A stretch of 36,422 bases of DNA from a virus: positions 1 through 36,422 of IMG/VR virus record IMGVR_UViG_3300030419_001946; one strand, 5' to 3'. Shown piece by piece: positions 2,676-20,508 of this stretch (position 1 is the stretch's first letter; every line of letters starts with the position of its first letter). The notes below the pieces were generated by a model that was given only the letters and a program-made list of their open reading frames with translations, made no database searches and was not told where the DNA came from. The position numbers were made by a program, and so were the translations under genes.

Positions 2676-3083
2676 TTAAGCGACTATAGCCATGAAGTGC
2701 GTCTGACTGTTTAGAGTGCCTTCTGCTTGCATGACGATTGTCGCTGTTCCAATACCTGCGTCAACAGTCAAAGATTTTCCTGCTACACCTGAACCTCCGA
2801 CAACGATTGCTACAATTTTACTTGCATCTCCGCCAACGGTGAACTCATTGTTGTCTTCTACTAAGGTAAAAGTTCCCACAACTAACTTCAATCCTGCTGT
2901 TGCGTCGGTTGTATTGGAGTTCTTTGCTTGAAATCCATCAAGAGCACCGGGGTATGAACTTGCTGCTGCTCCACCGTCTAGCCATGCAGTGTCGTCCGTT
3001 GGACTTCCTGCGTATAGGTCTAATTCGAATGTGACAGCCATTACGCCGCCACTGCCTGTTGTTCTGCTAAATGTTACTGCCAT
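2676..3083 (-). CDS. Probable head decoration protein (135 aa)
   Basis: This beta-rich protein contains only Ala, Gly, Thr, Ser and Val-dense segments (for example VVGTFTLVEDNNEFTVGG). It starts MAVTFSRTTGSGG and repeats MAVTF at residue 15. It immediately follows the major capsid gene and shares with it a 20-nt identical initiation region (GGAGATGATGAAAAATGGCA), suggesting matched high expression. Size and position fit a capsid decoration or stabilising protein of HK97-type heads. Function is inferred from context. Confidence 0.75.
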   Translation of the reverse strand: MAVTFSRTTGSGGVMAVTFELDLYAGSPTDDTAWLDGGAAASSYPGALDGFQAKNSNTTDATAGLKLVVGTFTLVEDNNEFTVGGDASKIVAIVVGGSGVAGKSLTVDAGIGTATIVMQAEGTLNSQTHFMAIVA

Positions 3084-3118: not shown

Positions 3119-4291
3119 TCAGGACAAGTCCCGAATACTCCCCTGTGCGCGGAAGAAGGTAGTCCATACCTCGCCCATGGTTCGGTATAGCCCTTCCTGA
3201 CCGAGACGGTTGATAGCGAACGGGTCGCCTGTCTCGATACCGGACTCGAAGTATTGAGTCGGGATTGCCGTGGAGAAGTATAGGTAGTCCGTGTCGAGGA
3301 AGTAAACTCGGCTGATGCCGTCCTTCTCAACGTCCTTCGATGGAATGATTGGGACACCGTTGTAGGTAGCGACGATGAATCCGGCTTCGATACCGGGAAC
3401 ACCCTTTACACCGTTGTAGGTTGGTGTAACGCGCTTCTCTTCCATGAATCGCTGCTGTGCCTGTAGCAACTGCTGTAGGCGCATTAGAGTATCATAGCCA
3501 GTGAGCATAACCTTGGGGTTGCCACCAAGTTCCCACATGCGCTGGAACACATCATCCAGTTGGTCGAGGGAGAAAGTTCTGCGGTTGGCTGAATCTTGGT
3601 CGGTGCCACAGTTCACGACAGCGTTGGACCATGAGTTTGCACTTCGGTCAATGCTGTAGATGTCGAGGTCACTTGCACCACAGTGGTCTGCGGATGCTGA
3701 ACCAGTTTCCATGGAAGTAGTTCCACCGGAGGAGCCACCGTCGTTTCCAGTGATTCGGTCAAGGGACTCGAAGTTGTTTCCTGCGGTTGTGTCAGAGTCC
3801 GTGAGGAGCATCTTGTTGACCATCTCAGCATGGTGCTTACCCATTTCTTCCTTGAGGACAGAGCGGATGTCACCAAGACCATCGTCCTTGTCAGCAAGGA
3901 AGATAGCGACTTCGCTCATGTCGAAGGAATGAGCGATGGTCTTAGGCTTTGCAGCCACGTGCTGGAAGACAGGCTTAACTGTCTCTGGTAGAGTGCCGTT
4001 TTCAGCAAGACCACCATGAAGAACACCAGCGTTAGGCTTCTCCGTGATGACGCGCCAACCCGAGCGGTCCCAAGGACGCTTAGGTAGGATTGAGAAAGCG
4101 TTGAACTCTTGGTTCAACTGGCTCCAGACCTTGCGGCCATAGATTGCTTGGTAGGTTCCAGCGGTGGTTGATAGCATTGGGCTGTCAGCCTTCAACAACT
4201 CACTACCGGTGTAGGAATATCCCATTGCATTACCAGCGCCATAGTAGTAGCGCTCCATGTCAGTAACTGTTCGAACGTAATTTCGTGCCAT
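3119..4291 (-). CDS. Probable major capsid protein (HK97-fold type)
   Basis: This 390-aa soluble protein lies directly downstream of the protease-scaffold gene and upstream of a decoration-like gene, the canonical position of a major capsid protein. It begins MARNYVRTVTDMERYYYGAG. It contains an extended-loop-like segment with Trp/Arg (KRPWDRSGWRVITEKPN, about residues 70-86), a helical stretch (about residues 125-160) and a C-terminal Gly/Thr/Tyr-rich part (YFLDTDYLYFSTAIPTQYF). The start is fixed by AAGGAG and ATG in a 20-nt initiation region shared with the next gene. The fold is inferred from gene order and size. No cleavage site can be placed with confidence. Confidence 0.8.
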   Translation of the reverse strand: MARNYVRTVTDMERYYYGAGNAMGYSYTGSELLKADSPMLSTTAGTYQAIYGRKVWSQLNQEFNAFSILPKRPWDRSGWRVITEKPNAGVLHGGLAENGTLPETVKPVFQHVAAKPKTIAHSFDMSEVAIFLADKDDGLGDIRSVLKEEMGKHHAEMVNKMLLTDSDTTAGNNFESLDRITGNDGGSSGGTTSMETGSASADHCGASDLDIYSIDRSANSWSNAVVNCGTDQDSANRRTFSLDQLDDVFQRMWELGGNPKVMLTGYDTLMRLQQLLQAQQRFMEEKRVTPTYNGVKGVPGIEAGFIVATYNGVPIIPSKDVEKDGISRVYFLDTDYLYFSTAIPTQYFESGIETGDPFAINRLGQEGLYRTMGEVWTTFFRAQGSIRDLS

Positions 4292-4322: not shown

Positions 4323-5714
4323 TCACTCGTCTCGGAAGACGCTCCCTGCGAGTTGGTGGACCTCGTCCCAAGACATGTTTGCGAGGTCAACCGTTGAAGG
4401 AACCTCGATGTTTGGGGAGGAATCGGACTTAGCAATCGTTGAACCAGATGCGCCAATGTTGTCAATGCGCTCATTTAGAGCGTCAAGAGCCTTCATGACC
4501 TCACCGAGAGGACCACGGGCATCGAAATCAGCAGCAGCAGCCTTCTGTAGTTCAGCATGAGTTTCTGATTGGAAACGGTCTTCAAAGTGCTTCTCAAGGT
4601 TGCCCTTGTAAGCCTGCTCTGCGCGAGCAGCCTTGTAGACCTCGTATGCGGCTTCTAACTGAGATGCGTCAACGGCGTCAGCGGTGATGAAATCACTCTT
4701 CTCAACCTTGCCGCCACCACGAGTTAGACCCGCACGAGCAAGAGCGTTAGTGGAAGGTGAGCCACCTTCTTGAGCGCGACCCTTTACCTGAGCGGCGAAG
4801 TAAGATGCACCGTCACCGATGGCTTCCGGCGTGGAGCCGAGGTTAGCCTTAGCGACATCATCGAAGTGAGCGCGAGCACCAGCAGTGTCAACACCAGCGG
4901 ACTTGAGAGTGTTCTCCATCCAGTCGAGGTATTCTGCGGTGATAACATCGGAATACTCGGACTTCTTCTTGTCGTCGTCGTCCTTGTCTTCTTTCTCATC
5001 CTTGGATTCATCCTTGGATTCATCTTTCGACTCTTTCTTAGCAGCAGCAAGTTGCGGGGGCAACTCTCCCTTCTCCATTGAGTCCAGTCGTCCTTCGAGG
5101 CGTTCGAGAACGCTACTCATTTGTTCCATTACATCGTCAGTCATTTTACTCACCTTGTTGTTATCCTTGTCTTCTTTTAGGATTCTAAATGTTGCTTCCG
5201 GGTTAATTCCCTTTTCGCAGATTGTCACTTCATGAAGTTCGAGTTTAGATATTTCTTGATAGGAACCGTGCGTGTTATCGCTTTTGTTGACTCGCTTGAA
5301 TGCTTGTCCTCCGATACTAAAACCACGTAGGTTTCCTTTTCGAACTTCTGCTGCTACCTCCCTTGCTTTTTCTATATCGTTTCTTAATTGGACTACAACA
5401 AACATTCCCGCGTCGTCTACTTCGCTTTTCCACATTCTCCCGTTGCTGTCCGTATAGTTTGGAATTACTTCTCCTACTTGTATATTTGAATGAGCGAGTT
5501 GGACATTTCTAAACTTCGGGTCTGTCATGAACTTCTTGAAGGCGTCCTTCAGAGCCGAGCGTGTAATCAAATCTCCCTGCTTGTCAACGAGTTCAACAGA
5601 AGCATATCCAGCAACGACGAGGTCAGACCCCGCCTTGAGGAGTTCAATGCCATGTTGTATAGGTTGTCGAAGCACACTAATCCCAGCAAGGGGCTGTTCA
5701 TCTATATGAACCAA
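4323..5714 (-). CDS. Prohead protease fused to scaffold domain
   Basis: Residues about 25-180 match the HK97 (U35) prohead protease pattern: VAGYASVELVDKQGDLI strand, LAHSN with the candidate catalytic His at residue 75, and LRGFSIGG with the candidate Ser at 133, then an EVTICEKGINPEA strand. Residues about 190-460 form a highly charged, Lys/Asp/Glu/Ser coiled-coil scaffold (KESKDESKDE repeats around 225-250), as in protease-scaffold fusions that mature capsids and then remove the core. The C-terminus (MSWDEVHQLAG) is shared with the 109-aa coiled-coil protein at 11978-12307. The start is TTG, supported by AGGGGTGA six bases upstream. The next gene is the major capsid protein. Confidence 0.85.
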   Translation of the reverse strand: MVHIDEQPLAGISVLRQPIQHGIELLKAGSDLVVAGYASVELVDKQGDLITRSALKDAFKKFMTDPKFRNVQLAHSNIQVGEVIPNYTDSNGRMWKSEVDDAGMFVVVQLRNDIEKAREVAAEVRKGNLRGFSIGGQAFKRVNKSDNTHGSYQEISKLELHEVTICEKGINPEATFRILKEDKDNNKVSKMTDDVMEQMSSVLERLEGRLDSMEKGELPPQLAAAKKESKDESKDESKDEKEDKDDDDKKKSEYSDVITAEYLDWMENTLKSAGVDTAGARAHFDDVAKANLGSTPEAIGDGASYFAAQVKGRAQEGGSPSTNALARAGLTRGGGKVEKSDFITADAVDASQLEAAYEVYKAARAEQAYKGNLEKHFEDRFQSETHAELQKAAAADFDARGPLGEVMKALDALNERIDNIGASGSTIAKSDSSPNIEVPSTVDLANMSWDEVHQLAGSVFRDE

Positions 5715-5720
5715 ACGCAG

Positions 5721-8700
5721 TCACCCCTCTGGCTCCTCAATCTCCATTTCGTTGGACTGCTCTAACATTTTGCGCTTTTTTCGGGCCGCTGGGTATTCCT
5801 CTTCAGGGTCTTCCGTTGGCCTCTCTAACATGTCCCAATCAGGCTGTGTTTGCTCACCTTGAACCTCAGTTGGTCCACGAGGTGATTCAACACCGTCACC
5901 AAAAAGACCGACACCCTGAGCACTGGTTCGCCCAGTCATCTTTTCTTTACTGATTCGCTCAGTTAAGTCAGCAATTCGACTGAGCATGTCTGCCATCTTC
6001 TTCTGCTCTTCAGGCTTCAAGATGGTTTCATCATCATCAGAATCAATGATTCCTGCTGATTCTTCCTCAGATTGTTCACGATGTTTAGGATTAGTCATAG
6101 TTCTAACACGCTCTAACTTCTTGGAAATCATGACACCTGCCACATCGTGCCAAATGGGACGAATGCTTTCAGCGAGTTGAATCGCATAGTCGGACTTCAT
6201 CAGAGGAGAAAGCAGGGCTTGAGGCTCATGGACCCAATATCCATTTCGAGTCATGGTCATCTTGTAGACCACATCATCAATACCATCAAAGGAAAGAGTC
6301 ATCTTCCCATCAGCCATTTCGATGTCATAATGCACAGGAATGATTGGATGTGACTTGGCAAGAAGGCTGAGAGATTCAAGGCTTGCTGGACTCTCTATAT
6401 TACTACCCGCGCGTATAGTATTAGGGGTGACATCATAAATGAGGCGTCCTGAACGCTTCTTTTCCTTAACACCCGAAACTGAGACGCGAACAATATCTCC
6501 TTCTTCAAACGGTTTAGGACTCTTCACAGTCCCAACATCGAGATATGTCTCTCCATCGAACTTCACCCCTCTGTTTCCGAGGTCATCCTCATCCACAGGC
6601 CCAGCACCAAGACGATAGGTAAACGGACCTTTTCCGCGAACATCGAGGATTATGAGAGCGATGTCCTTGTTCCTCCTGAGCATAAACCACTTTGGATGCC
6701 TTCGCTCTCCCTTCATGTATGTGGATTTACCATCACGGAGTAGAAGGCGGGGGTTTTCTTCAGACAATCTCTCCACGGCTGCTTCAAGACCTCCCTCATC
6801 AGTCACAACTGTGTCATCAGGAGACGGAATGTGTGCATTCTCATACGAATCAAACTGCCCACGAAGTAATTTCAAACGCTCAGGGGTGCTTAAATCACTG
6901 ACATTTGTGCCATCATAGTCAAGAATATCGAAGATGTAAATGTGATTTGGTCGCTTAATTGCATCAACAACGAAATCCTTCTCTGTCAACTTTTTGAGAT
7001 GCTTCTTTGTTCTACCCCTAATAGCAACATCATCTGCGTTTGAATCATAAGCAGAAATATCATCCCCGTCACGAGTGATAATGATGCGCTGTCCTTCAGG
7101 ATAAGCAGAAACCACCCAATCACCAGTGAAACCACGAAACGAATCGAGATTTTTGACGGAGAAAAGACGGTGCATTGGGAGAAGAGGAGGCGGTCTTGCC
7201 TCATCTTCTTTGTAAAGTAAGTCAGGATTCATCAACGTCATTAGGTCTTCACTCCTCAAGATTATATCATCATTAGGCCGTTGACCCATCATGTTCGCAC
7301 GAGAAATGTAATTCATAGTGCTGAGTGGTTGCCATTGTTGTTGACGCCATAAAGCGGCCTTTTCTTCACCATGTAGTTCCGCCATAATTCCGTGAGGGAC
7401 ACTGTGAAGCAACTCATTTTGGGTCTTGAAACCAATGACCGGTTGACCATTTTCAATTTCCCAACCAACAGGTGAGCGACCCGGATAACCAAAATCCATG
7501 GCAGACGTTGAACCCCACATATCCTGCACAGTGTGATGCTGCCCTGTTGTTGCTGGGCCAACAGGGAACGTGCCCCACCCTGCCTCTGTTGCTGTTCCCC
7601 CTGAATAGATTTGACCTTCCTCTTCCTCCCCGTGAGCCACAATCAAATCATGGAGCGTTGAACGGATTCTATTTTTTGTAGCCTTGATGTTAGGATTCTT
7701 TGCTGTGCCTCTCATTGCATTTCCATATACACTCTCTTGTCTTTGTGACATTTCAACAGGCGTCAGTGGGATATGAGTTAGATTGTTTATCTCACTTGCT
7801 TTCTCGTTACGGCGTATGATAGAAGGTATGAATGAAAGAGGACGCTCGTAACGGTCCTTTAGTTCATTTGCCTTCTGTTTAATCGTCCCACGCTGTTGCT
7901 TTACATAGTCAGTAAAAGCGTCTTGGTGGTTTTCAATTGAGGCGTCGTGAAACGCCATGCTCCCCCTTGGAGTCAAAGGGACACCAGTGCTATGCACCGC
8001 AGAATTGGTCATGACTCTTACTGGACCAATAGTTCTTGCATGGTCAAGAAGACGTTCTATCATGTCGTTGTGATACTCATCATTTGGAAGACCGAGATTT
8101 TGAAGAACAGTGATTGAGTTACTCTCAGGAAGAACCTCGACACCAAATCGTTTTACGATATTTCCCACTCTTGCATGCGGGTCAATGACATTACCTTCAG
8201 AAGAGAAAATCTCACTCGCACTTTTCTTTTCGACTTCTTTCCCACCATATGAGTGAGTGAAAATACCATCTTGTGGGTCTGCCATTCTCAAAACTCGCCC
8301 AGCGTCTGCTAAGGCCCTTGCTGAAATACTCCAGAAACCAGCAGGGTCTTGTTCAGGGTCAGGCATCTTGTCAGAAGGGACCATGGCAAGTAATCGCCTT
8401 GCCATTTCAATGTGTGCAGCATTATCAGCGGCATCTTTCTTATCTATATTCTCAAACTCTGCAAGTCGTTGTTTGTTAGTATACACATCACCGTATTGCT
8501 CAGAATGCTCATATTCTCGTAGGCTTTGCTCAATGGACTCTATTTCCTCCCCTCGCTCTTCCATCCTTCCAATAAGAGTGGGGTCTATCTCCCCTCGCTC
8601 TTTCATTTCTTCCAATTTTTCACTATCTTCATCCTGTAAAGCCATGAGATTAGTTATATTCTCCATATTCGTTTCATAATCAAAGTCACCGGATACATCT

Positions 8701-11432
8701 CTTGTTTCAGCAAATTGTTCTAAGTCGCGCCCTGCTCCTTGAAGACGCCCCATGGAACCCTCCCATTCTTTTGCGTCAGATACATTATGGCTAAACGGAT
8801 GACGGCCCGTTTTCAACTTCTTTACTGAAAGCATGCGCTCTTCTTGAGGGTCATGAGGTGGCCTCATTCTACCAAGTTTTGTTGCATGTCTATGAGCGTG
8901 TCTTGACCTTCTTTTAGAATGACCAAACGGGTCGGTGGATGATTGAATTGTATGAAGGGAATCACCAAGAGGACCAGATACTACATTAGAATATTTTGTA
9001 GGTTTACCCTGATACTTTTCTTGTCTTTCAAGATTACTCATTGTTCTAATGGTATTTGCATAAGGAGCAGCAAAAGATGTGACACCGTTACTAAACGTAT
9101 TTTTTGTTGTTCTTGCTTTTGTAGAGGCTTTTCCATCTCTGAAACCCTTCGGTCTACTCGCATCTTTAGCACTTAACACTCCAGCCGGGTCAACATCGAG
9201 AGGCGCTCTCTTGTCGTAATACATAGGAGTCAAGAAACCAGTAAGACCTGTGTGCTTTTCATTTGCTGTGAAAAAGGTATCATCGAAATCTTCATTCCCT
9301 ATATGAGAAAGTCCATCCTCGTCTTTCGGGTGATGACTGTGCAAAAAATGAAGGAATGCAGAAGATGACCTACCAAGTCCACCGCTCTCATGAAATGAGT
9401 CAGAGAAAAATGATGCTAATCCCTTGAGTGTTTCCCCATCATCGGTCAAGTATAACCCACGCTCATTTTCAGGAACATCTGTTGCCCTATACCCGTCATG
9501 ACCACGTAAATGCCTCTGTGCAGAGTTCCTTACTCTCTTGTGGTCACGAGAACGGTTAGCCAGTAAAAGAGCACGTTGACGAACATTATTGAAATCATCT
9601 GCGCTCATAAGAGGAGCATCAGGATGGTGGTCTTTTTTGGCCTCAAAGGGATTTAGATTTTCATCCAAACCAACAAGTTCGAGTAACTGCTTTTCACTAA
9701 TCTCGTTTTCACCCTTCTGAGATTCTTCTAATTCCCTGTAATATGCTTCTTCGTATGAAATGTCTTTATCTTCCGCACGCCGCCTTGCGTTTGCTGCGGT
9801 TCTAAGGTTAATTCTTGGAATATAATTCAACTCATCTAAAGTGGGAGGCTCATACTCATCCTCGTCTTCATCAAACTCATCCTCGTATGTTTCTCGCATT
9901 TTCGCACTGAGTGGTCTGTGGAACTTTCTATTGAGTTCACCGAGAATAAAATCATGCATAGTTCCTCCAGTGGGATGATTAGTTTCCTTCAACGCCTTGT
10001 AAAAAGCAGCACCGCTAAGTGCTTCTGTCGCTTTGGGAATATCCGCTTCACTTTCATAGTGAGCATTTACATTCCCACCATGTGCATTTTGACCACGGTG
10101 AAACCACTCATATTCGGAATTAACGCGTTGCTTAAGGTCACGAGCAATCCGACCAGCAGATGTATAAGTCCCATCACCGAGAGAAATCATCTGATTATCT
10201 GGATGCTTAGTGTCTTTTTCATAGAGATGCTTAGCAACCATATAACGCTGCGCTGGTGTCATGAACTCTAAACCATGCCTGTAACCGTTGTATGACATTT
10301 TCTTAGGAAAATGTATAGGTTCAGGTGCGTCACGAGGGACATCTTCCCCTCTCATTAAAGCCATCTCTCTTTCAATCCGCTCTTCATCAGTTTCACCAAT
10401 GTAAGGTTCAGGGTGAATCTCATCAGAAAACCAATCTTTTGCACGAGATTCGAAATGCTGTTTTCTTAACTCAAAATCCTGCTTTGCATCATCTTCAGGA
10501 AACATCTCTGTTACTTTTGTTGCAGCATTAGGGTTTTCAGCCTTCCAACGCTCAAAATCAGTCATGTATATGCTGTGAGGTGAAATGTCATGATGGCGAC
10601 CAGCAAAAGGTTGACGAGATTCATTTGTCTTTTCTTGTGCTAATTCTTCAATGGCTTGCTGACGGAATATTTTCTTAGGGTCTTGATTCAAATCAGGGTC
10701 TTCATTACCAAACAATATCTCTTTCACACTGTCATCAGTATTCTCATAGATTTCGTTAATCCTTTGTAGAATCTTTTTTTCTGACGTTTCCTCAACTGTT
10801 CCTGAAACAAAGGGATTTTCCTGACTGATGTCATGTTTGTCTTGCGCCTTTTCGATTTCAGCGTGGATTTCGCTATTGCTTTGAGCACCGGGTTCTGAAG
10901 GGAGATAAAAACGCCTTAATGTCTCAACCCAACGGGGTTCGCCAGTAATGGTATTAACACGCTTATGTGGATGAACAACTGGGCTAAACGGATGCATATC
11001 GTGATAATGGTCGTAACCAGCCTCTCCTACAACGTCAATGTCCTCTGTAAAAATCTGCTCAAGAGGGCGCTCAATAACTCGGTCAAACCAGTGATGTTCA
11101 CCATCATGCATCATCTCCGATATTCTTGTAATGTGTTCGTTTAACAACTGCACTTCAGAAAGTTCTTTGTTACTTCGCTTTTGTCTTTCTTTCTTTTGAG
11201 AGCGTCTGCTGAGTGGTTTAAATTGTCTTTGCTCCGATGGAATCTCTTCTTTCAAAATAGAGATAGTCAAGTGGTCTTCCCACGATTTGACAAAATCATC
11301 ACCCTGACGGGAGACATTTAGGACCGAAAAGTAATGGTCAGCGACGGCGTTATGATAATCAATGCCGTCAACTACAGCCTTGAGTAGATTATCGCGTGTC
11401 CTCAAATAGACATCGAAGGCATCTTCTCGCAC
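5721..11432 (-). CDS. 1903-aa giant virion protein with degenerate DNA-ligase-like domain
   Basis: One uninterrupted frame of 1903 codons, starting at GTG with GAGGGTGA six bases upstream. Residues 1-1400 are hydrophilic, charged and His/Asp/Glu-rich with coiled-coil stretches, and match no family I know. Residues about 1425-1675 resemble the adenylation plus OB-fold module of ATP-dependent DNA ligases: SAYPEGQRIIITRDGDD at motif I, HIYIFDILDYDGTNV, PKWFMLRRNKDIALIIL at motif V, and an OB-like FEEGDIVRVSVSGV. The lysine of KxDG is replaced (YPEG) and motif III/IV acids are not visible, so catalysis is unlikely. The acidic tail (last 150 residues) is coiled. Position between a zinc-ribbon gene and the protease suggests a core or ejected internal protein. 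Confidence 0.85.
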   Translation of the reverse strand: MREDAFDVYLRTRDNLLKAVVDGIDYHNAVADHYFSVLNVSRQGDDFVKSWEDHLTISILKEEIPSEQRQFKPLSRRSQKKERQKRSNKELSEVQLLNEHITRISEMMHDGEHHWFDRVIERPLEQIFTEDIDVVGEAGYDHYHDMHPFSPVVHPHKRVNTITGEPRWVETLRRFYLPSEPGAQSNSEIHAEIEKAQDKHDISQENPFVSGTVEETSEKKILQRINEIYENTDDSVKEILFGNEDPDLNQDPKKIFRQQAIEELAQEKTNESRQPFAGRHHDISPHSIYMTDFERWKAENPNAATKVTEMFPEDDAKQDFELRKQHFESRAKDWFSDEIHPEPYIGETDEERIEREMALMRGEDVPRDAPEPIHFPKKMSYNGYRHGLEFMTPAQRYMVAKHLYEKDTKHPDNQMISLGDGTYTSAGRIARDLKQRVNSEYEWFHRGQNAHGGNVNAHYESEADIPKATEALSGAAFYKALKETNHPTGGTMHDFILGELNRKFHRPLSAKMRETYEDEFDEDEDEYEPPTLDELNYIPRINLRTAANARRRAEDKDISYEEAYYRELEESQKGENEISEKQLLELVGLDENLNPFEAKKDHHPDAPLMSADDFNNVRQRALLLANRSRDHKRVRNSAQRHLRGHDGYRATDVPENERGLYLTDDGETLKGLASFFSDSFHESGGLGRSSSAFLHFLHSHHPKDEDGLSHIGNEDFDDTFFTANEKHTGLTGFLTPMYYDKRAPLDVDPAGVLSAKDASRPKGFRDGKASTKARTTKNTFSNGVTSFAAPYANTIRTMSNLERQEKYQGKPTKYSNVVSGPLGDSLHTIQSSTDPFGHSKRRSRHAHRHATKLGRMRPPHDPQEERMLSVKKLKTGRHPFSHNVSDAKEWEGSMGRLQGAGRDLEQFAETRDVSGDFDYETNMENITNLMALQDEDSEKLEEMKERGEIDPTLIGRMEERGEEIESIEQSLREYEHSEQYGDVYTNKQRLAEFENIDKKDAADNAAHIEMARRLLAMVPSDKMPDPEQDPAGFWSISARALADAGRVLRMADPQDGIFTHSYGGKEVEKKSASEIFSSEGNVIDPHARVGNIVKRFGVEVLPESNSITVLQNLGLPNDEYHNDMIERLLDHARTIGPVRVMTNSAVHSTGVPLTPRGSMAFHDASIENHQDAFTDYVKQQRGTIKQKANELKDRYERPLSFIPSIIRRNEKASEINNLTHIPLTPVEMSQRQESVYGNAMRGTAKNPNIKATKNRIRSTLHDLIVAHGEEEEGQIYSGGTATEAGWGTFPVGPATTGQHHTVQDMWGSTSAMDFGYPGRSPVGWEIENGQPVIGFKTQNELLHSVPHGIMAELHGEEKAALWRQQQWQPLSTMNYISRANMMGQRPNDDIILRSEDLMTLMNPDLLYKEDEARPPPLLPMHRLFSVKNLDSFRGFTGDWVVSAYPEGQRIIITRDGDDISAYDSNADDVAIRGRTKKHLKKLTEKDFVVDAIKRPNHIYIFDILDYDGTNVSDLSTPERLKLLRGQFDSYENAHIPSPDDTVVTDEGGLEAAVERLSEENPRLLLRDGKSTYMKGERRHPKWFMLRRNKDIALIILDVRGKGPFTYRLGAGPVDEDDLGNRGVKFDGETYLDVGTVKSPKPFEEGDIVRVSVSGVKEKKRSGRLIYDVTPNTIRAGSNIESPASLESLSLLAKSHPIIPVHYDIEMADGKMTLSFDGIDDVVYKMTMTRNGYWVHEPQALLSPLMKSDYAIQLAESIRPIWHDVAGVMISKKLERVRTMTNPKHREQSEEESAGIIDSDDDETILKPEEQKKMADMLSRIADLTERISKEKMTGRTSAQGVGLFGDGVESPRGPTEVQGEQTQPDWDMLERPTEDPEEEYPAARKKRKMLEQSNEMEIEEPEG

Positions 11433-11444
11433 ACTTCGTCACCC

Positions 11445-11981
11445 TCAGAGTTCCAGCATATCACGCATCTTGCTAAGAATCCCATCAACGACTTGTCGGT
11501 CGGCGCCGCCACCGTCGTGAGGATTCAACTGACCAGACAACTTGTCCATGGAAACTGACTCAGATGTTGCGCCTTTGTTAGTAACATCTTCTCCGCCGTA
11601 TAGATACTGATTGGTTGTGTAGTAAGCACTGCGTGTTTGTCCACCGCTTTCAGCCATGAACATAACTCCACCGGGGTTAGAGTCAAAAGATGTTTCAAAA
11701 CCCGGTTGAGTGCCCATTTCGGACTTTTCTACATTCATCTTTCCACCGCATCCCATCTTCATGCAAGCGCCTTTGTTCATTTTCTCACCGCAAGTTGGGC
11801 AATCTTTTGCTTTCTTCTTCTCGTCTTTAGCACCCTTACCATCAGCAGCGAAAGAAGGAACTTTCTTTCCTTCATGCTCAACCATGTCTAACTTTTCAGC
11901 CTTTTCAAAAAGACGTTGAGCCTTGTGAAGAAGGGTTATTGCATCTTTACTAACTGGGGATGGAATTGGTCGCATGTTCAT
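11445..11981 (-). CDS. 178-aa protein with cysteine-rich zinc motif
   Basis: After a basic helical N-terminus (about residues 1-60, with AITLLHKAQRLFEKAEKL) there is a short cysteine cluster CPTCGEKMNKGACMKMGCGG at about residues 61-80, then a Gly/Ser-rich, low-complexity C-terminal half. The cluster is a likely zinc knuckle. Its ATG overlaps the stop of the 109-aa gene by four bases, and it precedes the giant protein by 12 bases. Probably a head-assembly or core component. No family is recognised. Confidence 0.75.
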   Translation of the reverse strand: MNMRPIPSPVSKDAITLLHKAQRLFEKAEKLDMVEHEGKKVPSFAADGKGAKDEKKKAKDCPTCGEKMNKGACMKMGCGGKMNVEKSEMGTQPGFETSFDSNPGGVMFMAESGGQTRSAYYTTNQYLYGGEDVTNKGATSESVSMDKLSGQLNPHDGGGADRQVVDGILSKMRDMLEL

Positions 11982-12307
11982 ACCTCTGTGCTTTTGGCTT
12001 GGTCAGCCATCTCATGAATCTCATCCCAACTCATGAGATGGATTTCTTCATTTGTAAAAGTGTCATTTGCCTTGAGAAGCACACCCTCATCAGAGCGGAA
12101 AGCGTCTGTTTCTACATCCTCACTTAGAGGAGTCATTGTAGCAACAAAACCTGCCTTACGAAGAAGAGATGTTGGGTCGTTAATAATGCGTTGAAGACGT
12201 TGATTTTCTGCCTTGAGAATACCAAGGTCGTGGTCCATGGTTTCCATCTTAGAGATAAGTGTGGACATGAGTCGCTCTGTCGCACTCTCAGGTGCGTCAT
12301 CAGACAT
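11978..12307 (-). CDS. 109-aa coiled-coil protein with scaffold-like C-terminus
   Basis: Residues about 10-50 form a heptad-rich coiled coil (RLMSTLISKMETMDHDLGILK). The C-terminus reads HLMSWDEIHEMADQA, nearly matching the C-terminal MSWDEVHQLAG of the protease-scaffold fusion some 6 kb away in the same operon. In many tailed viruses the extreme C-terminus of the scaffold binds the capsid protein, so a second scaffold or core protein sharing that docking peptide is a reasonable inference. The gene follows the 116-aa gene by four bases and overlaps the next by ATGA. Confidence 0.75.
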   Translation of the reverse strand: MSDDAPESATERLMSTLISKMETMDHDLGILKAENQRLQRIINDPTSLLRKAGFVATMTPLSEDVETDAFRSDEGVLLKANDTFTNEEIHLMSWDEIHEMADQAKSTEV

Positions 12308-12311
12308 CTAA

Positions 12312-12662
12312 TCACTCTCCACCGGGAGTAAAGTGACCGAAAGTTCCACGGTGAACACGCATGGGTCCGCCAGTTCGTGCAGCAAGAATCATACCGGGTA
12401 GAACAGCATCACGTTGTGAAGAGTCAAACTTCTCACCAGTTGTGTTCATCTTCATGATTGGAGTAGAGATTTGAGTATTTCCACTTCTTTCTGCCTTCGT
12501 GATTTCCATGTGAATATCTTCTGAAAGATAACCAGCGAACTTTTTAATTTCATTCAAATGGTCTTGAGCAGCCATTGCGTCACCTGTTTCGAGTGCCTTG
12601 CTGAAGGCGTCAGCGTGAACGCCTAACTTGCGTGCCATAGGGTGCATTTTCTTGAGGTCCAT
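12312..12662 (-). CDS. 116-aa protein between portal and scaffold-like genes
   Basis: The protein opens MDLKKMHPMARKLGVHADAFSK, has an amphipathic helical first half (about residues 1-60) and a Gly/Thr/Met-rich second half ending FGHFTPGGE. The start has GGAGAGCGAG upstream of ATG. It sits directly after the portal gene. It may be a small portal- or core-associated structural protein, but there is no recognisable domain. Confidence 0.7.
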   Translation of the reverse strand: MDLKKMHPMARKLGVHADAFSKALETGDAMAAQDHLNEIKKFAGYLSEDIHMEITKAERSGNTQISTPIMKMNTTGEKFDSSQRDAVLPGMILAARTGGPMRVHRGTFGHFTPGGE

Positions 12663-12702: not shown

Positions 12703-14427
12703 TTACGCTCCACGCGGCCTTCTCGCGTTCTGTATTGCATCACTATTCAACTGCTGTTGAGTAGGTGCTGGTCCACGTTGTTGAACACTTGTCACGGGCG
12801 AACCAGCGCCCGGTGAGCCGCGTTGTTGTGGTCTTGCAGGGCTTCTTGGTGTGCGTATTCCTTGTCCTTCACCACCCGGTTGTGATGGAGGCATCATTCC
12901 ACCGGGAGGCATTCCTCCTCTCATTGGCATACCACCCGGAGGCATACCACCCGGAGGCATACCACCCGGAGGCATACCACCCGGAGGCATTCCGCCCGGT
13001 TGCGCCCCTTCTTCTTGTTGGCGATACACGAAGCGAATGTCTCGGTCACCCTCCTCCAAGAGTTCAGGTTGATAACCCAGCATTTGCATTCTTTGTGCCA
13101 AGTTGACTTCCATCTCATCACGGCGGAGGCGGGTGATTTCATCCTCTTCTTCATTTGGATAGAGGGTTAGTTTCCAATCTGTAATACTCATTTCTTTGAG
13201 TATGCGAGGGAATAGGCTCTCTGTGTAGACCTTTTGCCCAAACTCAACAGCACGATTAGTTACAAGAATCTGCAAACCTTCGTTGTTGAGTCCACCAGAT
13301 TTACCATTGTCAATCATAAAGATGCTCGACACACCGTAAAATGCGGCAATTCGATTACGAATCTCATCACGGACAGCGATATACTGCATTTCTTCCAACG
13401 TGTCCATGAACTTAACCCAATTGACAGCACCACGACCAGATTGCGATTCAATACCAACCTTCGGGATGTAATGCGGGTCACGCTCCATCTTTTCATCAAC
13501 GCCCTTCCAGAAGGACTTCATTGACTCAAGATTGTCTGTCGTGACAGAAATAATACCTTTTGGAATCCGCCTCTTCTGGTAAGCAGTATACATGTAATTG
13601 TCCATTGCAGTGAGTGTCATTGCCTGACGCCACATCGTATTGACTGGGGAAGTCCCATACAACTTAGATGGGTTATACTTACTGATATGAATGACTTCAC
13701 CTTTCGTGTAATATTGGTTCTTACCAGAACCTGACATGTTCACATAGTGAGCGTCTACAAGTTTTGAGCCGCATACTTGACACGCTGGCTCCTGACCGGG
13801 ATAAGCCACTTGGTCACGATGGATTTTACAAATCTTGTATCGTCCACCCCGAACACCACGCTTGTCAGCGATAATACGCATGAAAATAGGGTCACCACGA
13901 ATAACTTGCTTAACTCGATAGAACTGTATGTCACCCGTTTCAGGGTCCACATAATACTCTTTGATGAGAATCAAAAACGCATCATCTACAATATTCAAGT
14001 CACGCTCAATTTCGTAAAGAACATCCATGAAACTTTGCTCCATGGCATTTTCTTGCTCCAATAACCAACGACCGTAAATAACCTGCTCAGGGTCAGGGTC
14101 ACGAACTTCTCCACCACATGTCTTACACATGTCAACATCATGCTGGAACTCCTCACCGCACTCAGTGCACTTCTTACGAAACTTCTTCTCCCAATAGTAT
14201 CCCCGTCGGAAAATCTCCTGACCTAACTTTGCCAACACAGTTCGTAGAATAAGATTCTCATTTGAAACAGCGAATAAAGCAGGAATAGTAATACCTTGTG
14301 CGAGAACAGGCTCTTGGATACCTGTTGTATACAAGGGCATTTGAGGCTCAGGTGTTGTGCGTCGCCTAAACGGATTAGCAAGAGCCGATAAAAATCGGCT
14401 AACTGGGCCTTGGTTATCTTCTGCCAT
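12703..14427 (-). CDS. Portal protein with two internal zinc ribbons
   Basis: The size (574 aa), place between terminase and protease/capsid genes, and features typical of phage portals support this call: an N-terminal ALANPFRRR segment, a middle IRNRIAAFYGVSSIFMID and a later LFPRILKEM helix region. Two zinc-binding clusters are visible: CTECGEEFQ...CKTCGGE (about residues 86-106), and CKIHRD...CQVCGSK (about 203-224). The C-terminus is low complexity with tandem GGMPP repeats, Pro/Gln-rich. ATG at 14427 is chosen (GGAGGG six bases upstream; overlaps the previous stop by one base). Portals form the dodecameric DNA channel at one capsid vertex. The zinc ribbons are unusual for this family as known to me. 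Confidence 0.85.
   Translation of the reverse strand: MAEDNQGPVSRFLSALANPFRRRTTPEPQMPLYTTGIQEPVLAQGITIPALFAVSNENLILRTVLAKLGQEIFRRGYYWEKKFRKKCTECGEEFQHDVDMCKTCGGEVRDPDPEQVIYGRWLLEQENAMEQSFMDVLYEIERDLNIVDDAFLILIKEYYVDPETGDIQFYRVKQVIRGDPIFMRIIADKRGVRGGRYKICKIHRDQVAYPGQEPACQVCGSKLVDAHYVNMSGSGKNQYYTKGEVIHISKYNPSKLYGTSPVNTMWRQAMTLTAMDNYMYTAYQKRRIPKGIISVTTDNLESMKSFWKGVDEKMERDPHYIPKVGIESQSGRGAVNWVKFMDTLEEMQYIAVRDEIRNRIAAFYGVSSIFMIDNGKSGGLNNEGLQILVTNRAVEFGQKVYTESLFPRILKEMSITDWKLTLYPNEEEDEITRLRRDEMEVNLAQRMQMLGYQPELLEEGDRDIRFVYRQQEEGAQPGGMPPGGMPPGGMPPGGMPPGGMPMRGGMPPGGMMPPSQPGGEGQGIRTPRSPARPQQRGSPGAGSPVTSVQQRGPAPTQQQLNSDAIQNARRPRGA
12931..12990 (-). repeat. Four perfect 15-bp tandem repeats in portal C-terminus
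   Basis: The plus-strand unit ACCACCCGGAGGCAT occurs four times in a row, encoding GMPPG-type repeats. Degenerate copies extend on both sides. It gives the portal tail a flexible, Pro/Gly/Met-rich extension and is a site prone to copy-number change by slippage. Confidence 0.9.
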
Positions 14428-15638
14428 CACAGACCCTCCTCATATTTACCAATTGTATCCACATCAATGCCCCAACTCTCAAGCAATTCGGTAGCCTTTC
14501 GAGTATCATCCTTCCAATTATTGTATCTAACGACTCGCTTTATCTCTTCCTTCCGAACCTTGTCGTCTTCTTCTATGAAGGCGAGAACGCCCTTGGCTTG
14601 AACTTCCTTCATACGCAGGTGAGGTAGCACTCCCGTTAGGAGTTTGCGGATGTCAGCCTTTGAATAGAACTGAAGTCGATGCTGACTCCTCTGTGAATCC
14701 TTGTAGACCTTATTATCGAGTTGAAGAACGCCGCAGCCCAGTGTTTTATGGAGATTTTCACAATGTATTCTTCCTCTATCCCCTGTTGCGATAAAGCCAG
14801 CACGTGGTTCACCGCGTCCTGTAATTGTGATATATCCATCAGCGTCAAGGAATCCAGCACTGTATGCCCATGGGTCTTTGAGAACAAGGCCATCAGAATC
14901 AAGAACAACATAAGTTCCGCGCTTTGCACCCTTAATGATGTCAACTTCTTCACCATACATATTGAGAAGCCGGGCCAATTTCTTATCAGTAAATGATTTT
15001 TTCATCATACCCGCTTCACTTAGATTTCTACGAATCTCAGTGGACTTCATCGGTCCTCTCTCATTCAACTGTTGAGCAGCAAAAGAAAGAAAATCTCGCT
15101 CATGCTTAGTGAGAGCATCAATCTGATGTAGGCTATTTTTCCACATCTTCTTCGCATCACTTCTCGTAGACATGGCTGTAGCCCATGCACGTTGCTCTTC
15201 TTCTCCCCATACATCCTCAAACTCATCGAGCATTTTGAGGGCAACCTCTGCACTTTTCCACATGTTACATGCTTGTTGAAGAGATACGGAACGGGTTTCC
15301 CCAAACTTACGCAAACTCTTGAGGTCACGGTCACTAAGTCCTAATTGCTTGATGACATCAGCATTCTCAGCACCCCAAGTAAGTGAATTGATTGTTACTT
15401 CAGTTTCTAACGCTTTCATGACACGTATGTCAGAAATAATGGCATCAATTTCATCACGACTATCCTTATTTCGTCTACGCATTTTTCGCAATCTTTTCAC
15501 AAGGTCACCGGCAGAACAGCCTAACTTAGCCTCAAACCAACCATCACCATTAGCAAAAAGGCTCTCAGTCACTTCAGCCTTAGTGATGACTTCGGGGACT
15601 TCTTCTTCGAAGGATTCGATAAGTGCCGACCCCCACAT
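14427..15638 (-). CDS. Winged-helix protein with C-terminal LAGLIDADG domain
   Basis: The 403-aa protein has a charged helical N-terminal half. A winged-helix-like stretch follows at about residues 165-250 (KSTEIRRNLSEAGMMKK through TYVVLDSDG). The C-terminal domain, from about residue 265, contains AGFLDADGYITI (a single LAGLIDADG motif) and a following IHCENLHKTLGCG-type element. LAGLIDADG proteins are usually homing endonucleases or DNA-binding factors derived from them. Here it is a standalone gene between the packaging and portal genes, not inside an intron or intein. It may be a domesticated regulator or packaging nuclease. ATG at 15638 has GAGGTCA nearby as ribosome site. Confidence 0.8.
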   Translation of the reverse strand: MWGSALIESFEEEVPEVITKAEVTESLFANGDGWFEAKLGCSAGDLVKRLRKMRRRNKDSRDEIDAIISDIRVMKALETEVTINSLTWGAENADVIKQLGLSDRDLKSLRKFGETRSVSLQQACNMWKSAEVALKMLDEFEDVWGEEEQRAWATAMSTRSDAKKMWKNSLHQIDALTKHERDFLSFAAQQLNERGPMKSTEIRRNLSEAGMMKKSFTDKKLARLLNMYGEEVDIIKGAKRGTYVVLDSDGLVLKDPWAYSAGFLDADGYITITGRGEPRAGFIATGDRGRIHCENLHKTLGCGVLQLDNKVYKDSQRSQHRLQFYSKADIRKLLTGVLPHLRMKEVQAKGVLAFIEEDDKVRKEEIKRVVRYNNWKDDTRKATELLESWGIDVDTIGKYEEGL

Positions 15639-16510: not shown

Positions 16511-18108
16511 CTCTTTAGTGCTGCACCTTTTGGTGTGAGTTTACCTTTCTTTGATGTTGGCCCCTTTGTTCCACTCATACGAGCGCAGAATGACTTACGG
16601 CGCTTGGCCTTCTTAGAGCCGGGCTTGAGTTTACTTGGCTTAGTGGTTACAGGTGGTTTGAGATTTGCACCCGTCTCACGCTTGAACTTAGCCCTTCCTT
16701 TAGCACTTAGCCCACCTTTTCTATGGTGGCGCTTTGGATTATATCCGTGAAACGGTTTGGACTTCTTCTTGGCTTTCATAACAGCCCAAGCAAGTTCACT
16801 GGGGCTACAACAATCACAGAAATCAACATTAGACAAATCACCTTTGAGAATATCAGATAAAGCATCATCATCTTCACTTCTTTGGATTATACCTTCTGCA
16901 CCGCGTCTTTGTTGCACTGTATTTTTTCTTGGCCGTTGTATTGTTCTACCATAGTTAGGATTCCTCCGCAAACCATATGGGGTTTTTTCATACATAGGTT
17001 CATCTGCAAATCGTGGGTCAGGGACAGTTACTAAGCGACCGGTTTTTGAACCATGTAAAGCATGAAGCCTTGGTCTAATATTAGGAGAATCTCCTTGAAG
17101 ACCTTGAAGCCGGTCTAACTCTCTTTCTTCATGGTCAAGACGAAGTTCCATATGAGGGTCTTCAAAAGGTATTTCTCCTTCAATATTCATACGACTATAC
17201 ATTGGTATTGGATTTTCTACTTCGGTAGGTTGTATGCCCCCACTGGCCCATACTTCATCAGGTAATGATGCATAATTTACAGGAGGTTCTACTTCTGAGA
17301 GAGGAGTCATTGCCGGACTCATAGGTATTGTTTCCGGTGGTAACTGTTCACCAGCCTCGGTAACGCCTCTGTCTAAAGGTAATGGGCTGAGGTTGGACGG
17401 ACCCGTTGGTGCAAAGGCCGAACCCCACGGCCAACCGCCTCGTTTGAACCTGTCAAGCAAATACGCGTGTTTAATCTTCCCTATTCCAGAGCCAGTAGGA
17501 CCACGCCGGTCTGAATACTTGTGTTCTGTGCGAGAAGGAGAAGAAGGGTCAAACCGTCCAGCAGCCTTGAGTAAACGCCAAGCCAAGTCCATCGCTTCTC
17601 CGGTTTGCACACGCCCTGTCATACGGTCAGAGAAGAACTTAGACGGGTCATCGCGACGAAGTTCAGCAAGGCTTTCTTGTCCTTGTGCAACTTGACGGCG
17701 GTGTTTATCCACTTGTCGCATTAAACGCATAAAGTTCTCACGGTGAACTGGGTCGTATTCTTCAGGGTTTTGTCGCATATCCATAAAATCAGGAGATTGA
17801 AGCCCTTCTTCATAGAGGGCAGTCGGCATTTGTTCATCTCCGGGCGAAAGAACCTGTGCAGCCTGTGTAGCCACTTCGCGTCCCGGTGTTTCCTGACCTA
17901 ACATATTCGCAGTTGATTGGAAACGACGGGCAGTCGGGAAATCACGGGCACCACGAAGGGACTCGGCTTCTTGTTGAAGTTCTTCGATACTGGCTTTCTT
18001 CTTCGTATCAGGGTCAGCCTCTCGCTCAGGTTTCTTACCACCGGGTTTACCCACTGAGATAACAACGACCATGCCCTTGGGCTTCTTGCCGACTTTTTCC
18101 TCTTTCAT
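16498..18108 (-). CDS. 536-aa tagged protein with basic C-terminal domain
   Basis: Two copies of the recurrent tag are present: EAMDLAWRLLKAAG (Trp about 177) and SPSELAWAVMKAKK (Trp about 441, preceded by CDCC). Between them lies a Pro/Glu/Arg-rich, poorly ordered region. The last 80 residues (GGLSAKGRAKFKRETGANLK...CARMSG...LKRWNC) match, from memory, a short basic domain widespread in marine phages. The ATG at 18108 overlaps the terminase stop by ATGA; an in-frame TTG at 18120 is less likely. A packaged DNA-binding virion protein is inferred. Confidence 0.8.
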   Translation of the reverse strand: MKEEKVGKKPKGMVVVISVGKPGGKKPEREADPDTKKKASIEELQQEAESLRGARDFPTARRFQSTANMLGQETPGREVATQAAQVLSPGDEQMPTALYEEGLQSPDFMDMRQNPEEYDPVHRENFMRLMRQVDKHRRQVAQGQESLAELRRDDPSKFFSDRMTGRVQTGEAMDLAWRLLKAAGRFDPSSPSRTEHKYSDRRGPTGSGIGKIKHAYLLDRFKRGGWPWGSAFAPTGPSNLSPLPLDRGVTEAGEQLPPETIPMSPAMTPLSEVEPPVNYASLPDEVWASGGIQPTEVENPIPMYSRMNIEGEIPFEDPHMELRLDHEERELDRLQGLQGDSPNIRPRLHALHGSKTGRLVTVPDPRFADEPMYEKTPYGLRRNPNYGRTIQRPRKNTVQQRRGAEGIIQRSEDDDALSDILKGDLSNVDFCDCCSPSELAWAVMKAKKKSKPFHGYNPKRHHRKGGLSAKGRAKFKRETGANLKPPVTTKPSKLKPGSKKAKRRKSFCARMSGTKGPTSKKGKLTPKGAALKRWNC

Positions 18109-19586
18109 GGAATCACCCAACTATCTCTCTTGGCCCCACCACTCATGTAATCATCAAAGCCGGGAAGGTAGTCATCAAGAAGCATGACTGAACCACGGAA
18201 CTCTTTGGTTCCCCAGTTAGCAAGAGCGAGCGCCATTGCCAAGTCGTCATGCGTTCCCACACTCTCAAGCCTCCCATTTTTCTGCATACCAAACCGATTC
18301 AATTCTTCTTCCAACTTGTGAGTGAACGTCTTACTTCTCTCGTCTCCATACGGCGTGCGTATCTGCCCTTGTTCAAAAGCCAGCAGTAGGGACATGAAGA
18401 GGCTTTCCTTTCTTGTCTTAGTTGTCATAAAGGTTCGAATTGGAATATCGTCACGTATTTCTTTCAACTCCATGGCGAACATTCGCTGGAAATTGTTACC
18501 CTCAAGTTCAATGAGGTCAGGTTTGAACTTGTTATTGAGAATAATGATTTGACGCTTCTGAGCCATCGAAGACATTCCTTTTTCGTGAATGATATTGACA
18601 ATCTGTTTTTCATTTTCGCCGGGTGGAGTGCGAAGAGTAACCATTGCTGTAAAGTCAGCATTCTTGTCAGAAGCAATCGCTGTATCCCAACCAATGAAAT
18701 GCTGACCGAATACACCGGCAGGTTCCCCTTCTTCGTTGTATTCCATTTCTGCCCGGTCAAGAAGAACAAGATTGGTGTCACGTGCTCTCTCAAGAATATC
18801 CGACGGGAACATACTGGCAACGTCGTGAATTGGTTCACACAGATACTCACGAGTAAACTGAATTGCTGGCATAGACCGGCGACGCTCTTCGAGCGAGTCC
18901 AAGTCCCAACGCTCAGGCCACAACGCCACGCCCTCAGCGTTAATCGCAGGATATGTTTCGACAACGAACGTATCCTTCTGCTCAAGTTCCGCATACAGGT
19001 CATTGTATGAGAACGGAGTTCCGACCATCATTAGACGCGCACTATGGTGAAGAACAGGAAGCAGAACACCATAGAACCAATCGGCTGCTCGCTGCAACTC
19101 TCCACCCGTTGTGCCCCACAGAATATCGTCACATACAACCACATCAGGGTGGAAACCACGAGTTGCTCCACCGACCGACTTTGCCATAATACGACTACCG
19201 TTTGTGAACTCGAAATAGGACTTAGCCCACGGTTTACCAGTGGGTCGAAGTTGGCGAAGGCAAGGAGTTGTGTCTATACAATTACGAATAAAACGCATGT
19301 GTTCGAGTGTCTGCTCCAATGAGTGAGAGAAAACCATGATGTGTGTGCCGGGCTTAAACGCAGCAATCCACAACGCATAGGCCATGAACAGAGTGGATTT
19401 ACCATGGTCACGGGATGCTTTTACGCAATAGTAGCGATTTTGGGTCAAGCCTTCGTCCCATAATTGGTGGTGATGTGAGTAATGAAAACCAAGGATTGAC
19501 TCAAAGAAAAAACGGAATGAGCGAGAAGCCATCTTCCCATCCATCTCGATGATGAGTTGCTTGGTCTGTTCATTATCATCTGACAC
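18105..19586 (-). CDS. terL: Terminase large subunit
   Basis: The ATPase part shows a Walker A-like SRDHGKST, a motif with GSRIMAKSVGGATRGF, and Walker B DVVVCDD. The nuclease part has FIGWDTAIASDKNADFTAMV, LIELEGN and the C-terminal THDDLAMALALANWG, each offering the acidic residues of the RNase H-like endonuclease. This motor cuts and pumps DNA through the portal. GTG at 19586 (TTG 19589 as alternative) is chosen because AGGAGGT lies 6-9 bases upstream; starting at the more distant TTG (19616) would bury the ribosome site in coding sequence. About 493 aa is normal for the family. It overlaps the flanking genes slightly. Confidence 0.93.
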   Translation of the reverse strand: MSDDNEQTKQLIIEMDGKMASRSFRFFFESILGFHYSHHHQLWDEGLTQNRYYCVKASRDHGKSTLFMAYALWIAAFKPGTHIMVFSHSLEQTLEHMRFIRNCIDTTPCLRQLRPTGKPWAKSYFEFTNGSRIMAKSVGGATRGFHPDVVVCDDILWGTTGGELQRAADWFYGVLLPVLHHSARLMMVGTPFSYNDLYAELEQKDTFVVETYPAINAEGVALWPERWDLDSLEERRRSMPAIQFTREYLCEPIHDVASMFPSDILERARDTNLVLLDRAEMEYNEEGEPAGVFGQHFIGWDTAIASDKNADFTAMVTLRTPPGENEKQIVNIIHEKGMSSMAQKRQIIILNNKFKPDLIELEGNNFQRMFAMELKEIRDDIPIRTFMTTKTRKESLFMSLLLAFEQGQIRTPYGDERSKTFTHKLEEELNRFGMQKNGRLESVGTHDDLAMALALANWGTKEFRGSVMLLDDYLPGFDDYMSGGAKRDSWVIP

Positions 19587-20508
19587 CAATGAAAGACCTC
19601 CTGTTACCCTTTTCAAAATCTCCTAAAGTTGATTGAACCATCTTTTTTTCTTCTTCAGTAAGAGCCTTATGTTCATTCATGGCTTCATCAGAAACATGAC
19701 TTGGTTCAGCCATGTGTTGTGACACTCCACTGCCCAATGCGTTTTGCGCTTCCACAATTTCTTGGGGAGATAATGACTGCGCCGTCGTAGGTGGTGCTAC
19801 AGTAGGTGGTGCTACAGATTGCGTCGTAGGAGCACCTGTATCAAACCCTTCAAAATCACCTAATTTTGCTTGCTGTGTCTCACCCGCCGAAGTTGGAGGT
19901 CGAAGCGGAAGAGATACTCCGACGGGTGGACGTTTTATCATGGATGCTCTCATACCTGCGGTTTGCAACGCTGGGCTGAGTTGTTGGTGAGTAAGATAAC
20001 CTTGGGTTCCTGCGCTCCCGAGTGCACTGATGAGGTCTGTGCCTGATTCATTGGCTCTTTGAAGTGCCAGCAAACCAGCAAGACCACCAAGGGCACCGGC
20101 TGCAAATCTACCAGCACGTGCACCTCGTCCAGTTCTTCGGAGTGCCTCATTGAATGCTTGCTGAGTATTTGAAGAACGCTGTGCATGACCACGTGCTAAA
20201 CGCTCTTGAAGAGGCATTTTTTTGTCATATCTTGCTTGTGCCCTTTGCGCCCATCCCCTTTGCTCTTCAGGAGTTCTTCCACTAAGAGTAGTAGGAGCAC
20301 CAAGTGCAGCGAGTCGCTCCGCATCTTTATCTTTTGTAGGTTCAAAACCAAGTTCTCCACTTTGTGTAATAAATGACTCATGAGGCTTCAAACGGTCAGG
20401 ACCGGGTTGGTATCTTAAATTGGAACTACTTTCACCCATACTCAGAGGGACTTGAAACGGTCCTATCTGTGTGAACACATCCTGCTTTAATACGAGAACT
20501 GGCTTCAT
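19576..20508 (-). CDS. 310-aa protein of unknown function before terL
   Basis: The N-terminus (MKPVLVLKQDVFTQIGPFQVP) is followed by an Arg/Gln-rich region. A central Gly/Ala-rich, weakly hydrophobic segment (about residues 132-165, GRFAAGALGGLAGLLALQ) follows, and then repeats of VAPPT near residue 235. The Gly/Ala segment resembles membrane-inserting stretches of some ejected virion proteins, but could also be a flexible helix. The start overlaps the previous stop (TGATG-type). Possible virion protein. No family is recognised. Confidence 0.75.
   Translation of the reverse strand: MKPVLVLKQDVFTQIGPFQVPLSMGESSSNLRYQPGPDRLKPHESFITQSGELGFEPTKDKDAERLAALGAPTTLSGRTPEEQRGWAQRAQARYDKKMPLQERLARGHAQRSSNTQQAFNEALRRTGRGARAGRFAAGALGGLAGLLALQRANESGTDLISALGSAGTQGYLTHQQLSPALQTAGMRASMIKRPPVGVSLPLRPPTSAGETQQAKLGDFEGFDTGAPTTQSVAPPTVAPPTTAQSLSPQEIVEAQNALGSGVSQHMAEPSHVSDEAMNEHKALTEEEKKMVQSTLGDFEKGNRRSFIGVR

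What the first reader, a model, noticed from the sequence alone, without database searches (positions are those of the whole stretch)
6400..7180. Degenerate DNA-ligase-like domain inside a 1903-aa virion protein
Residues about 1425-1675 show the order of adenylation-domain and OB-fold features of ATP-dependent ligases, but KxDG reads YPEG and the acidic residues of motifs III and IV are not visible. An inactive nucleotidyltransferase fold embedded in a giant probable structural protein suggests recruitment of a ligase for DNA-end or nick binding rather than catalysis.
Basis: partly seen in the sequence, partly recalled or inferred. Interest (0 to 1): 0.75.

Follow-up and report, generated by a model that had tools for sequence, protein, structure and literature searches.

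The report
Dead DNA-ligase domain in head protein
A giant protein in the head-building gene cluster of viruses that probably infect marine archaea contains a DNA-ligase fold in which the catalytic residues tested are gone, yet it is the most strictly conserved part of the protein, so a former enzyme appears to have been turned into a building or binding part.

Summary
Residues ~1415-1680 of the 1903-aa ORF (window 6393-7190, minus strand) are an ATP-dependent DNA-ligase nucleotidyltransferase (NTase) plus OB fold. All 20 homologues first aligned, and 47 later, hit Pfam DNA_ligase_A_M. The AlphaFold model matches archaeal ligases (Foldseek E 1e-11).

In 176 of 179 distinct homologous domains that could be parsed, the KxDG lysine is never present. 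The motif III glutamate is I/V, the motif IV glutamate column is unconserved, and the first motif V lysine is L/V/M/I. A new signature, RD..S.YM.GE..HPKW, is nearly invariant (HPKW 179/179).

dN/dS of the domain is 0.01-0.02 against 0.18-0.33 for residues 1-1400. The ORF lies between portal and prohead protease in nearly all relatives (magrovirus-like). It is the only PF01068 match in 16 contigs of 81-108 kb, so the "ATP-dependent DNA ligase" credited to magroviruses may be this dead domain.

One clade (39 domains) lacks the OB fold but keeps the NTase part, and conserved positions show no excess of basic residues. Presence in the virion is inferred from gene position only.

The parts
5721..11432 (-). 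1903-aa giant ORF (GTG start) carrying the ligase-like domain
   Evidence: orthologues of about 1750-2080 aa in the same slot
6675..7190 (-). pseudo-nucleotidyltransferase (adenylation-fold) domain, residues 1415-1586
   Evidence: PF01068 match, Foldseek, 179 distinct homologous domains
6393..6674 (-). OB-fold domain, residues about 1587-1680; absent in one clade of relatives
   Evidence: beta-rich region in the models; missing in 39 distinct domains, one change on the tree
7086..7103 (-). motif I remnant Y1444-P-E-G-Q-R1449 in place of KxDGxR
6957..6965 (-). motif III remnant D1490-A-I1492 in place of DGE
6675..6755 (-). motif IV-V region, residues 1560-1586, with the near-invariant RD..S.YM.GE..HPKW signature; motif IV Glu and motif V Lys lost
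7233..8432 (-). upstream mixed alpha/beta region, residues 1001-1400, confidently modelled except its last ~25 residues, no known family
5808..5957 (-). conserved C-terminal tail, residues 1826-1875 (KEKMT...ESPRGPT), low-confidence model
12703..14430 (-). portal protein
   Evidence: phrog_18178 E 4e-62, PF04860
11445..12662 (-). three small conserved genes between portal and the giant ORF (11445-11981, 11978-12307, 12312-12662)
   Evidence: conserved order in most loci that reach this far
4323..5714 (-). S78-type prohead maturation protease, next gene downstream
   Evidence: PF04586 E 4e-9, phrog_23555
3119..4291 (-). major capsid protein (SU10/HVTV-1 type)
   Evidence: phrog_24667 E 2e-59; 34% identity to HVTV-1 MCP
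18105..19616 (-). terminase large subunit
   Evidence: phrog_38 E 2e-63

Best explanation
The feature is a pseudoenzyme: the NTase-OB core of an ATP-dependent DNA ligase (archaeal/eukaryotic type by fold), captured by a magrovirus-like tailed virus of marine archaea, fused into a giant protein of the head module, and stripped of its catalytic residues in all sampled relatives. Shown: fold, loss of catalytic residues, strong purifying selection, fixed place between portal and prohead protease, and absence of the OB part in one clade (one change on the tree). Inferred: hydrophobic residues now fill much of the former ATP pocket. Also inferred: the NTase core works as a rigid, non-catalytic docking module of a head-associated protein, using the surface around the new RD..S.YM.GE..HPKW signature to hold another virion protein, or a fixed DNA or portal-vertex contact, during assembly, packaging or ejection.
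For: Profile and fold. Loss of catalysis: 0 lysines at the KxDG position in 176 parsed of 179 distinct domains; motif III Glu to I/V and first motif V Lys to L/V/M/I. HPKW in 179/179. Domain blocks about 0.5-0.8 conserved against mostly 0.3-0.5 elsewhere. dN/dS 0.009-0.023 in the domain against 0.18-0.33 in residues 1-1400. Synteny: protease follows the giant ORF in 180 of 186 loci, and 5 others show the same pair on the minus strand. OB missing in one clade while the NTase is retained.
Against: No experiment shows that the protein is in the virion or what the domain binds. A binding partner is not identified. The retained Arg of KxDGxR and the Arg/Trp cluster would also suit DNA contact. The dN/dS values rest on few substitutions and two very close relatives.
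Confidence: 0.6

Rival explanations
1. DNA-end or nick binder: the dead ligase clamp holds packaged or ejected genome ends or nicks without sealing them.
For: Ligase ancestry; Arg of KxDGxR kept in nearly all homologues, and the Y..G...R/K...W cluster kept. Catalytically dead Dnl4 still binds double-strand breaks and shapes joining in yeast (PMC3694833).
Against: OB half missing in a whole clade; no basic enrichment at conserved positions (p 0.62); upstream region is mixed alpha/beta, not the helical DNA-binding domain.
Confidence: 0.25
2. Nucleotide or cap sensor: the dead NTase pocket still binds a nucleotide or capped end, as snurportin's guanylyltransferase-like domain binds the m3G cap.
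For: Weak Pfam matches to SPN1_m3Gcap_bd in 15 of 20 members, best E 0.0028; snurportin appears in the PDB list at E 0.72.
Against: Matches are below the curated cut-off; pocket positions are bulky hydrophobics in most members (W/M/Y/L/F, I/V, L/V/M).
Confidence: 0.07
3. Still-active enzyme with a shifted lysine (SKWYDG has a Lys one residue earlier; SIQKDG one residue later).
For: Many homologues carry a Lys one position before the canonical one (94 of 168 rows).
Against: The window and many others have none (SAYPEG, SGLPRG, SVMPEG); the motif III, IV and first motif V catalytic residues are lost as well.
Confidence: 0.03
4. The ligase resemblance is a chance profile match.
For: Single-sequence scores are modest, around the Pfam cut-off.
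Against: All 47 members of a diverse alignment match, and an independent fold comparison puts archaeal ligases first.
Confidence: 0.02

Closest known systems
ATP-dependent DNA ligase, archaeal LigB/eukaryotic LIG type (PDB 6wbo, 4eq5; Pfam PF01068)
   Same: NTase + OB order and fold; motif IIIa (FD...DG), Y..G...R/K...W region, Arg of KxDGxR
   Different: No catalytic Lys, no conserved Glu in motifs III and IV, first motif V Lys lost, no RxDK in the window; short link between motifs III and IIIa; embedded in a 1903-aa head-module protein
HGTV-1 ATP-dependent DNA ligase (a true ligase of an archaeal tailed virus)
   Same: Superfamily and fold (BFVD hit)
   Different: Stand-alone 475-aa gene with KVDGYR, DGEV, EEGIIVKD and WQKRK intact, PF01068 E 1e-25
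Snurportin-1 m3G-cap-binding domain
   Same: An NTase fold reused without catalysis (from general knowledge)
   Different: Derived from the capping-enzyme branch; sequence link here only suggestive
HVTV-1 gp115 (Druskaviridae), large protein between portal and protease
   Same: Similar genome slot in a related virus
   Different: Zeta-toxin kinase and ART domains, no detectable homology

Membership tests
ATP-dependent DNA ligase | NTase + OB fold | tested here: met
   (OB absent in one clade)
ATP-dependent DNA ligase | Motif I KxDGxR lysine | tested here: not met
   0 Lys in 176 parsed of 179 distinct domains
ATP-dependent DNA ligase | Motif III glutamate (DGE) | tested here: not met
   I 122, V 38, others 7 of 168 rows, no Glu
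ATP-dependent DNA ligase | Motif IV glutamate | tested here: not met
   column variable: D 42, E 34, K 32, P 17 and others; P in the window
ATP-dependent DNA ligase | Motif V KxK | tested here: not met
   first Lys is L/V/M/I in all 168 rows; second is R in 138 and K in 11
ATP-dependent DNA ligase | Motif VI RxDK | tested here: not met
   absent in window residues 1590-1700 by inspection; not counted across the family
ATP-dependent DNA ligase | Ligation or auto-adenylylation activity | not testable with these tools
   needs biochemistry
Virion structural protein | Gene in the head module | tested here: met
   portal - three small genes - giant - protease - MCP order
Virion structural protein | Presence in the particle | not testable with these tools
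   no cultured member (PMC10768690)
Magrovirales | HVTV-1-like MCP, PolB, 90-110 kb genome | tested here: inconclusive
   MCP 34% to HVTV-1; HMGL-like gene in the window; PolB in 10/10 large relatives, contigs up to 108 kb among those searched; ICTV reference genomes not held

The most novel reading that the evidence does not exclude
Magroviruses as sampled lack a recognisable DNA ligase gene altogether. The ligase credited to them is a pseudo-ligase that became an essential, invariant part of the head or portal apparatus, a previously unreported reuse of a replication enzyme as a structural virion module.
Probability: 0.45. Interest if true: 0.75.

Novelty: new variant of a known kind. Interest (0 to 1): 0.6.

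Why it matters
Magroviruses are described as among the most abundant marine viruses, and published profiles credit them with an ATP-dependent DNA ligase as part of near host-independent replication (PMC10768690, PMC12999244, PMC10160649). If the only ligase-like sequence is this dead domain, that claim needs revision. It would also be a clear case of a replication enzyme turned into a head component, with a conserved signature that can be tested directly.

Tried and rejected
Homology of the giant ORF to HVTV-1 gp113-gp116, gp119 or vir519_22: none by hhalign. Relatives in cellular genomes: none by two GTDB pattern scans. Relatives among deposited phage records: none by tblastn. NAD+ ligase or RNA ligase in 10 large relatives: none. 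HGTV-1 ligase as query in 13 large relatives: none, but without a positive control. Basic-residue enrichment at conserved positions: not significant. Other known domains in residues 1-1400: none. Decaying relic: rejected by dN/dS. hhalign of the family profile to a single true ligase (HGTV-1) was not significant (E 0.28), so the motif register rests on HMMER alignments to 4eq5 and 3rr5 and on inspection of HGTV-1.

Full report
Observation. The minus-strand ORF 5721-11432 encodes 1903 aa. Residues 1480-1582 match Pfam DNA_ligase_A_M (E 8e-5 in the full protein; 3e-6 for the isolated 312 aa), as do all 20 members of a homologue alignment and all 47 of a broader one. A profile search of the PDB puts archaeal DNA ligase 4eq5 first. 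An AlphaFold2 model of the domain (mean pLDDT 72) retrieves archaeal and eukaryotic ATP DNA ligases and then mRNA guanylyltransferase, and viral DNA ligases and capping enzymes.

Catalysis. Motif definitions follow PMC4609770 and general knowledge of the family. The register comes from HMMER alignments to ligases 4eq5 and 3rr5, with the intact ligase of haloarchaeal virus HGTV-1 inspected as a contrast (KVDGYR, DGEV, EEGIIVKD, WQKRK). Over 179 distinct NTase domains from 323 ORFs, the lysine position (176 parsed) is W 78, M 21, Y 20, L 19, F 16, H 15, Q 6, I 1, never K, and no domain contains KxDGxR at all. On 168 aligned rows (some near-duplicates) the motif III glutamate is I 122 or V 38 with no Glu, the motif IV glutamate column is unconserved, the first motif V lysine is always hydrophobic, and the second is mostly Arg. 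The domain is therefore very unlikely to adenylylate or ligate. Hydrophobic residues at three of these positions suggest a filled pocket (inference).

Constraint. The domain is the longest well-conserved stretch of the protein (about 0.5-0.8 majority identity per 25-residue block, against mostly 0.3-0.5 elsewhere; only the C-terminal tail is comparable). Against two close relatives dN/dS is 0.009 and 0.023 in residues 1401-1700, against 0.18-0.33 in residues 1-1400; neighbouring MCP and portal genes give about 0.12 and 0.04. A new signature, [RK]D..S.YM.GE..HPKW, is nearly invariant. A dead enzyme is thus under strong selection for something else.

OB loss. In 39 distinct domains the sequence passes from HPKW straight into the C-terminal region, without the roughly 105-aa OB part. 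On a tree of 107 NTase domains this is a single change with 99% SH-aLRT support; that it is a loss rather than an original absence is inferred from the ligase ancestry. This weakens a DNA-encircling clamp as the essential function, since the NTase part persists alone.

Context. The giant ORF is followed by the S78 protease in 180 of 186 loci, with 5 more showing the pair on the other strand, and is preceded by three small genes and the portal where the locus reaches that far. The MCP is 34% identical to that of HVTV-1, and an HMGL-like gene lies at 33037-33867. Together with PolB in 10 of 10 large relatives this fits magroviruses, viruses assigned to Poseidoniales archaea (PMC10768690, PMC12999244); the reference genomes were not held, so assignment is by resemblance. 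That the protein is part of the virion is inferred from gene position.

The ligase of magroviruses. ICTV profiles and a survey credit magroviruses with an ATP-dependent DNA ligase (PMC10768690, PMC12999244, PMC10160649). In 16 relatives of 81-108 kb the only PF01068 match is this giant ORF, and NAD+ and RNA ligase families are absent from the 10 tested. The records are not marked complete, and the papers' gene tables could not be read, so identity with the published 'ligase' is an inference.

Mechanism. I favour a non-catalytic docking module in a head-associated protein (about 60% with the identity claims included). DNA-end or nick binding stays open (25%): the Arg of KxDGxR is kept, and catalytically dead Dnl4 in yeast still binds breaks and shapes joining (PMC3694833). 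Against it are the OB loss and the lack of basic enrichment at conserved positions (Fisher p 0.62). A snurportin-like nucleotide-binding role is possible but only weakly suggested.

Verdict. A real, conserved pseudo-ligase domain; not a member of the working DNA ligases; a new variant of a known kind (pseudoenzyme reuse). I found no description of such a case in the searched library, which holds open-licence papers only.

Noticed in passing
window 2676-3083 (-): The small gene just after the MCP is only 36% identical to its counterpart in relatives L002, L003, L004 and L006 whose neighbouring genes are about 95% identical: a swapped or fast-changing gene, possibly decoration or surface related.
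   Followed up: no
window 5808-5957 (-), residues 1826-1875: The C-terminal tail of the giant protein (KEKMT...ESPRGPT...) is strongly conserved yet modelled with low confidence, which would suit a short docking peptide or a protease-related site.
   Followed up: no
window 7233-8432 (-), residues 1001-1400: A mixed alpha/beta region, confidently modelled except its last ~25 residues (pLDDT about 70-96), matches no Pfam, PHROG or PDB sequence family.
   Followed up: partly
L114 13623-17564 (HVTV-1 gp115): In the related haloarchaeal virus HVTV-1 the large protein between portal and protease carries zeta-toxin kinase and ADP-ribosyltransferase domains instead of a ligase fold.
   Followed up: partly
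BFVD entry A0A516LT18 (827 aa, no name given): Best viral structural match to the 903-aa C-terminal model (E 2e-24, 464 columns, 20% identity); a distant relative in another protein whose source I could not identify.
   Followed up: no
window 33037-33867 (-): HMGL-like gene (PF00682), an auxiliary metabolic gene also reported in magroviruses.
   Followed up: no
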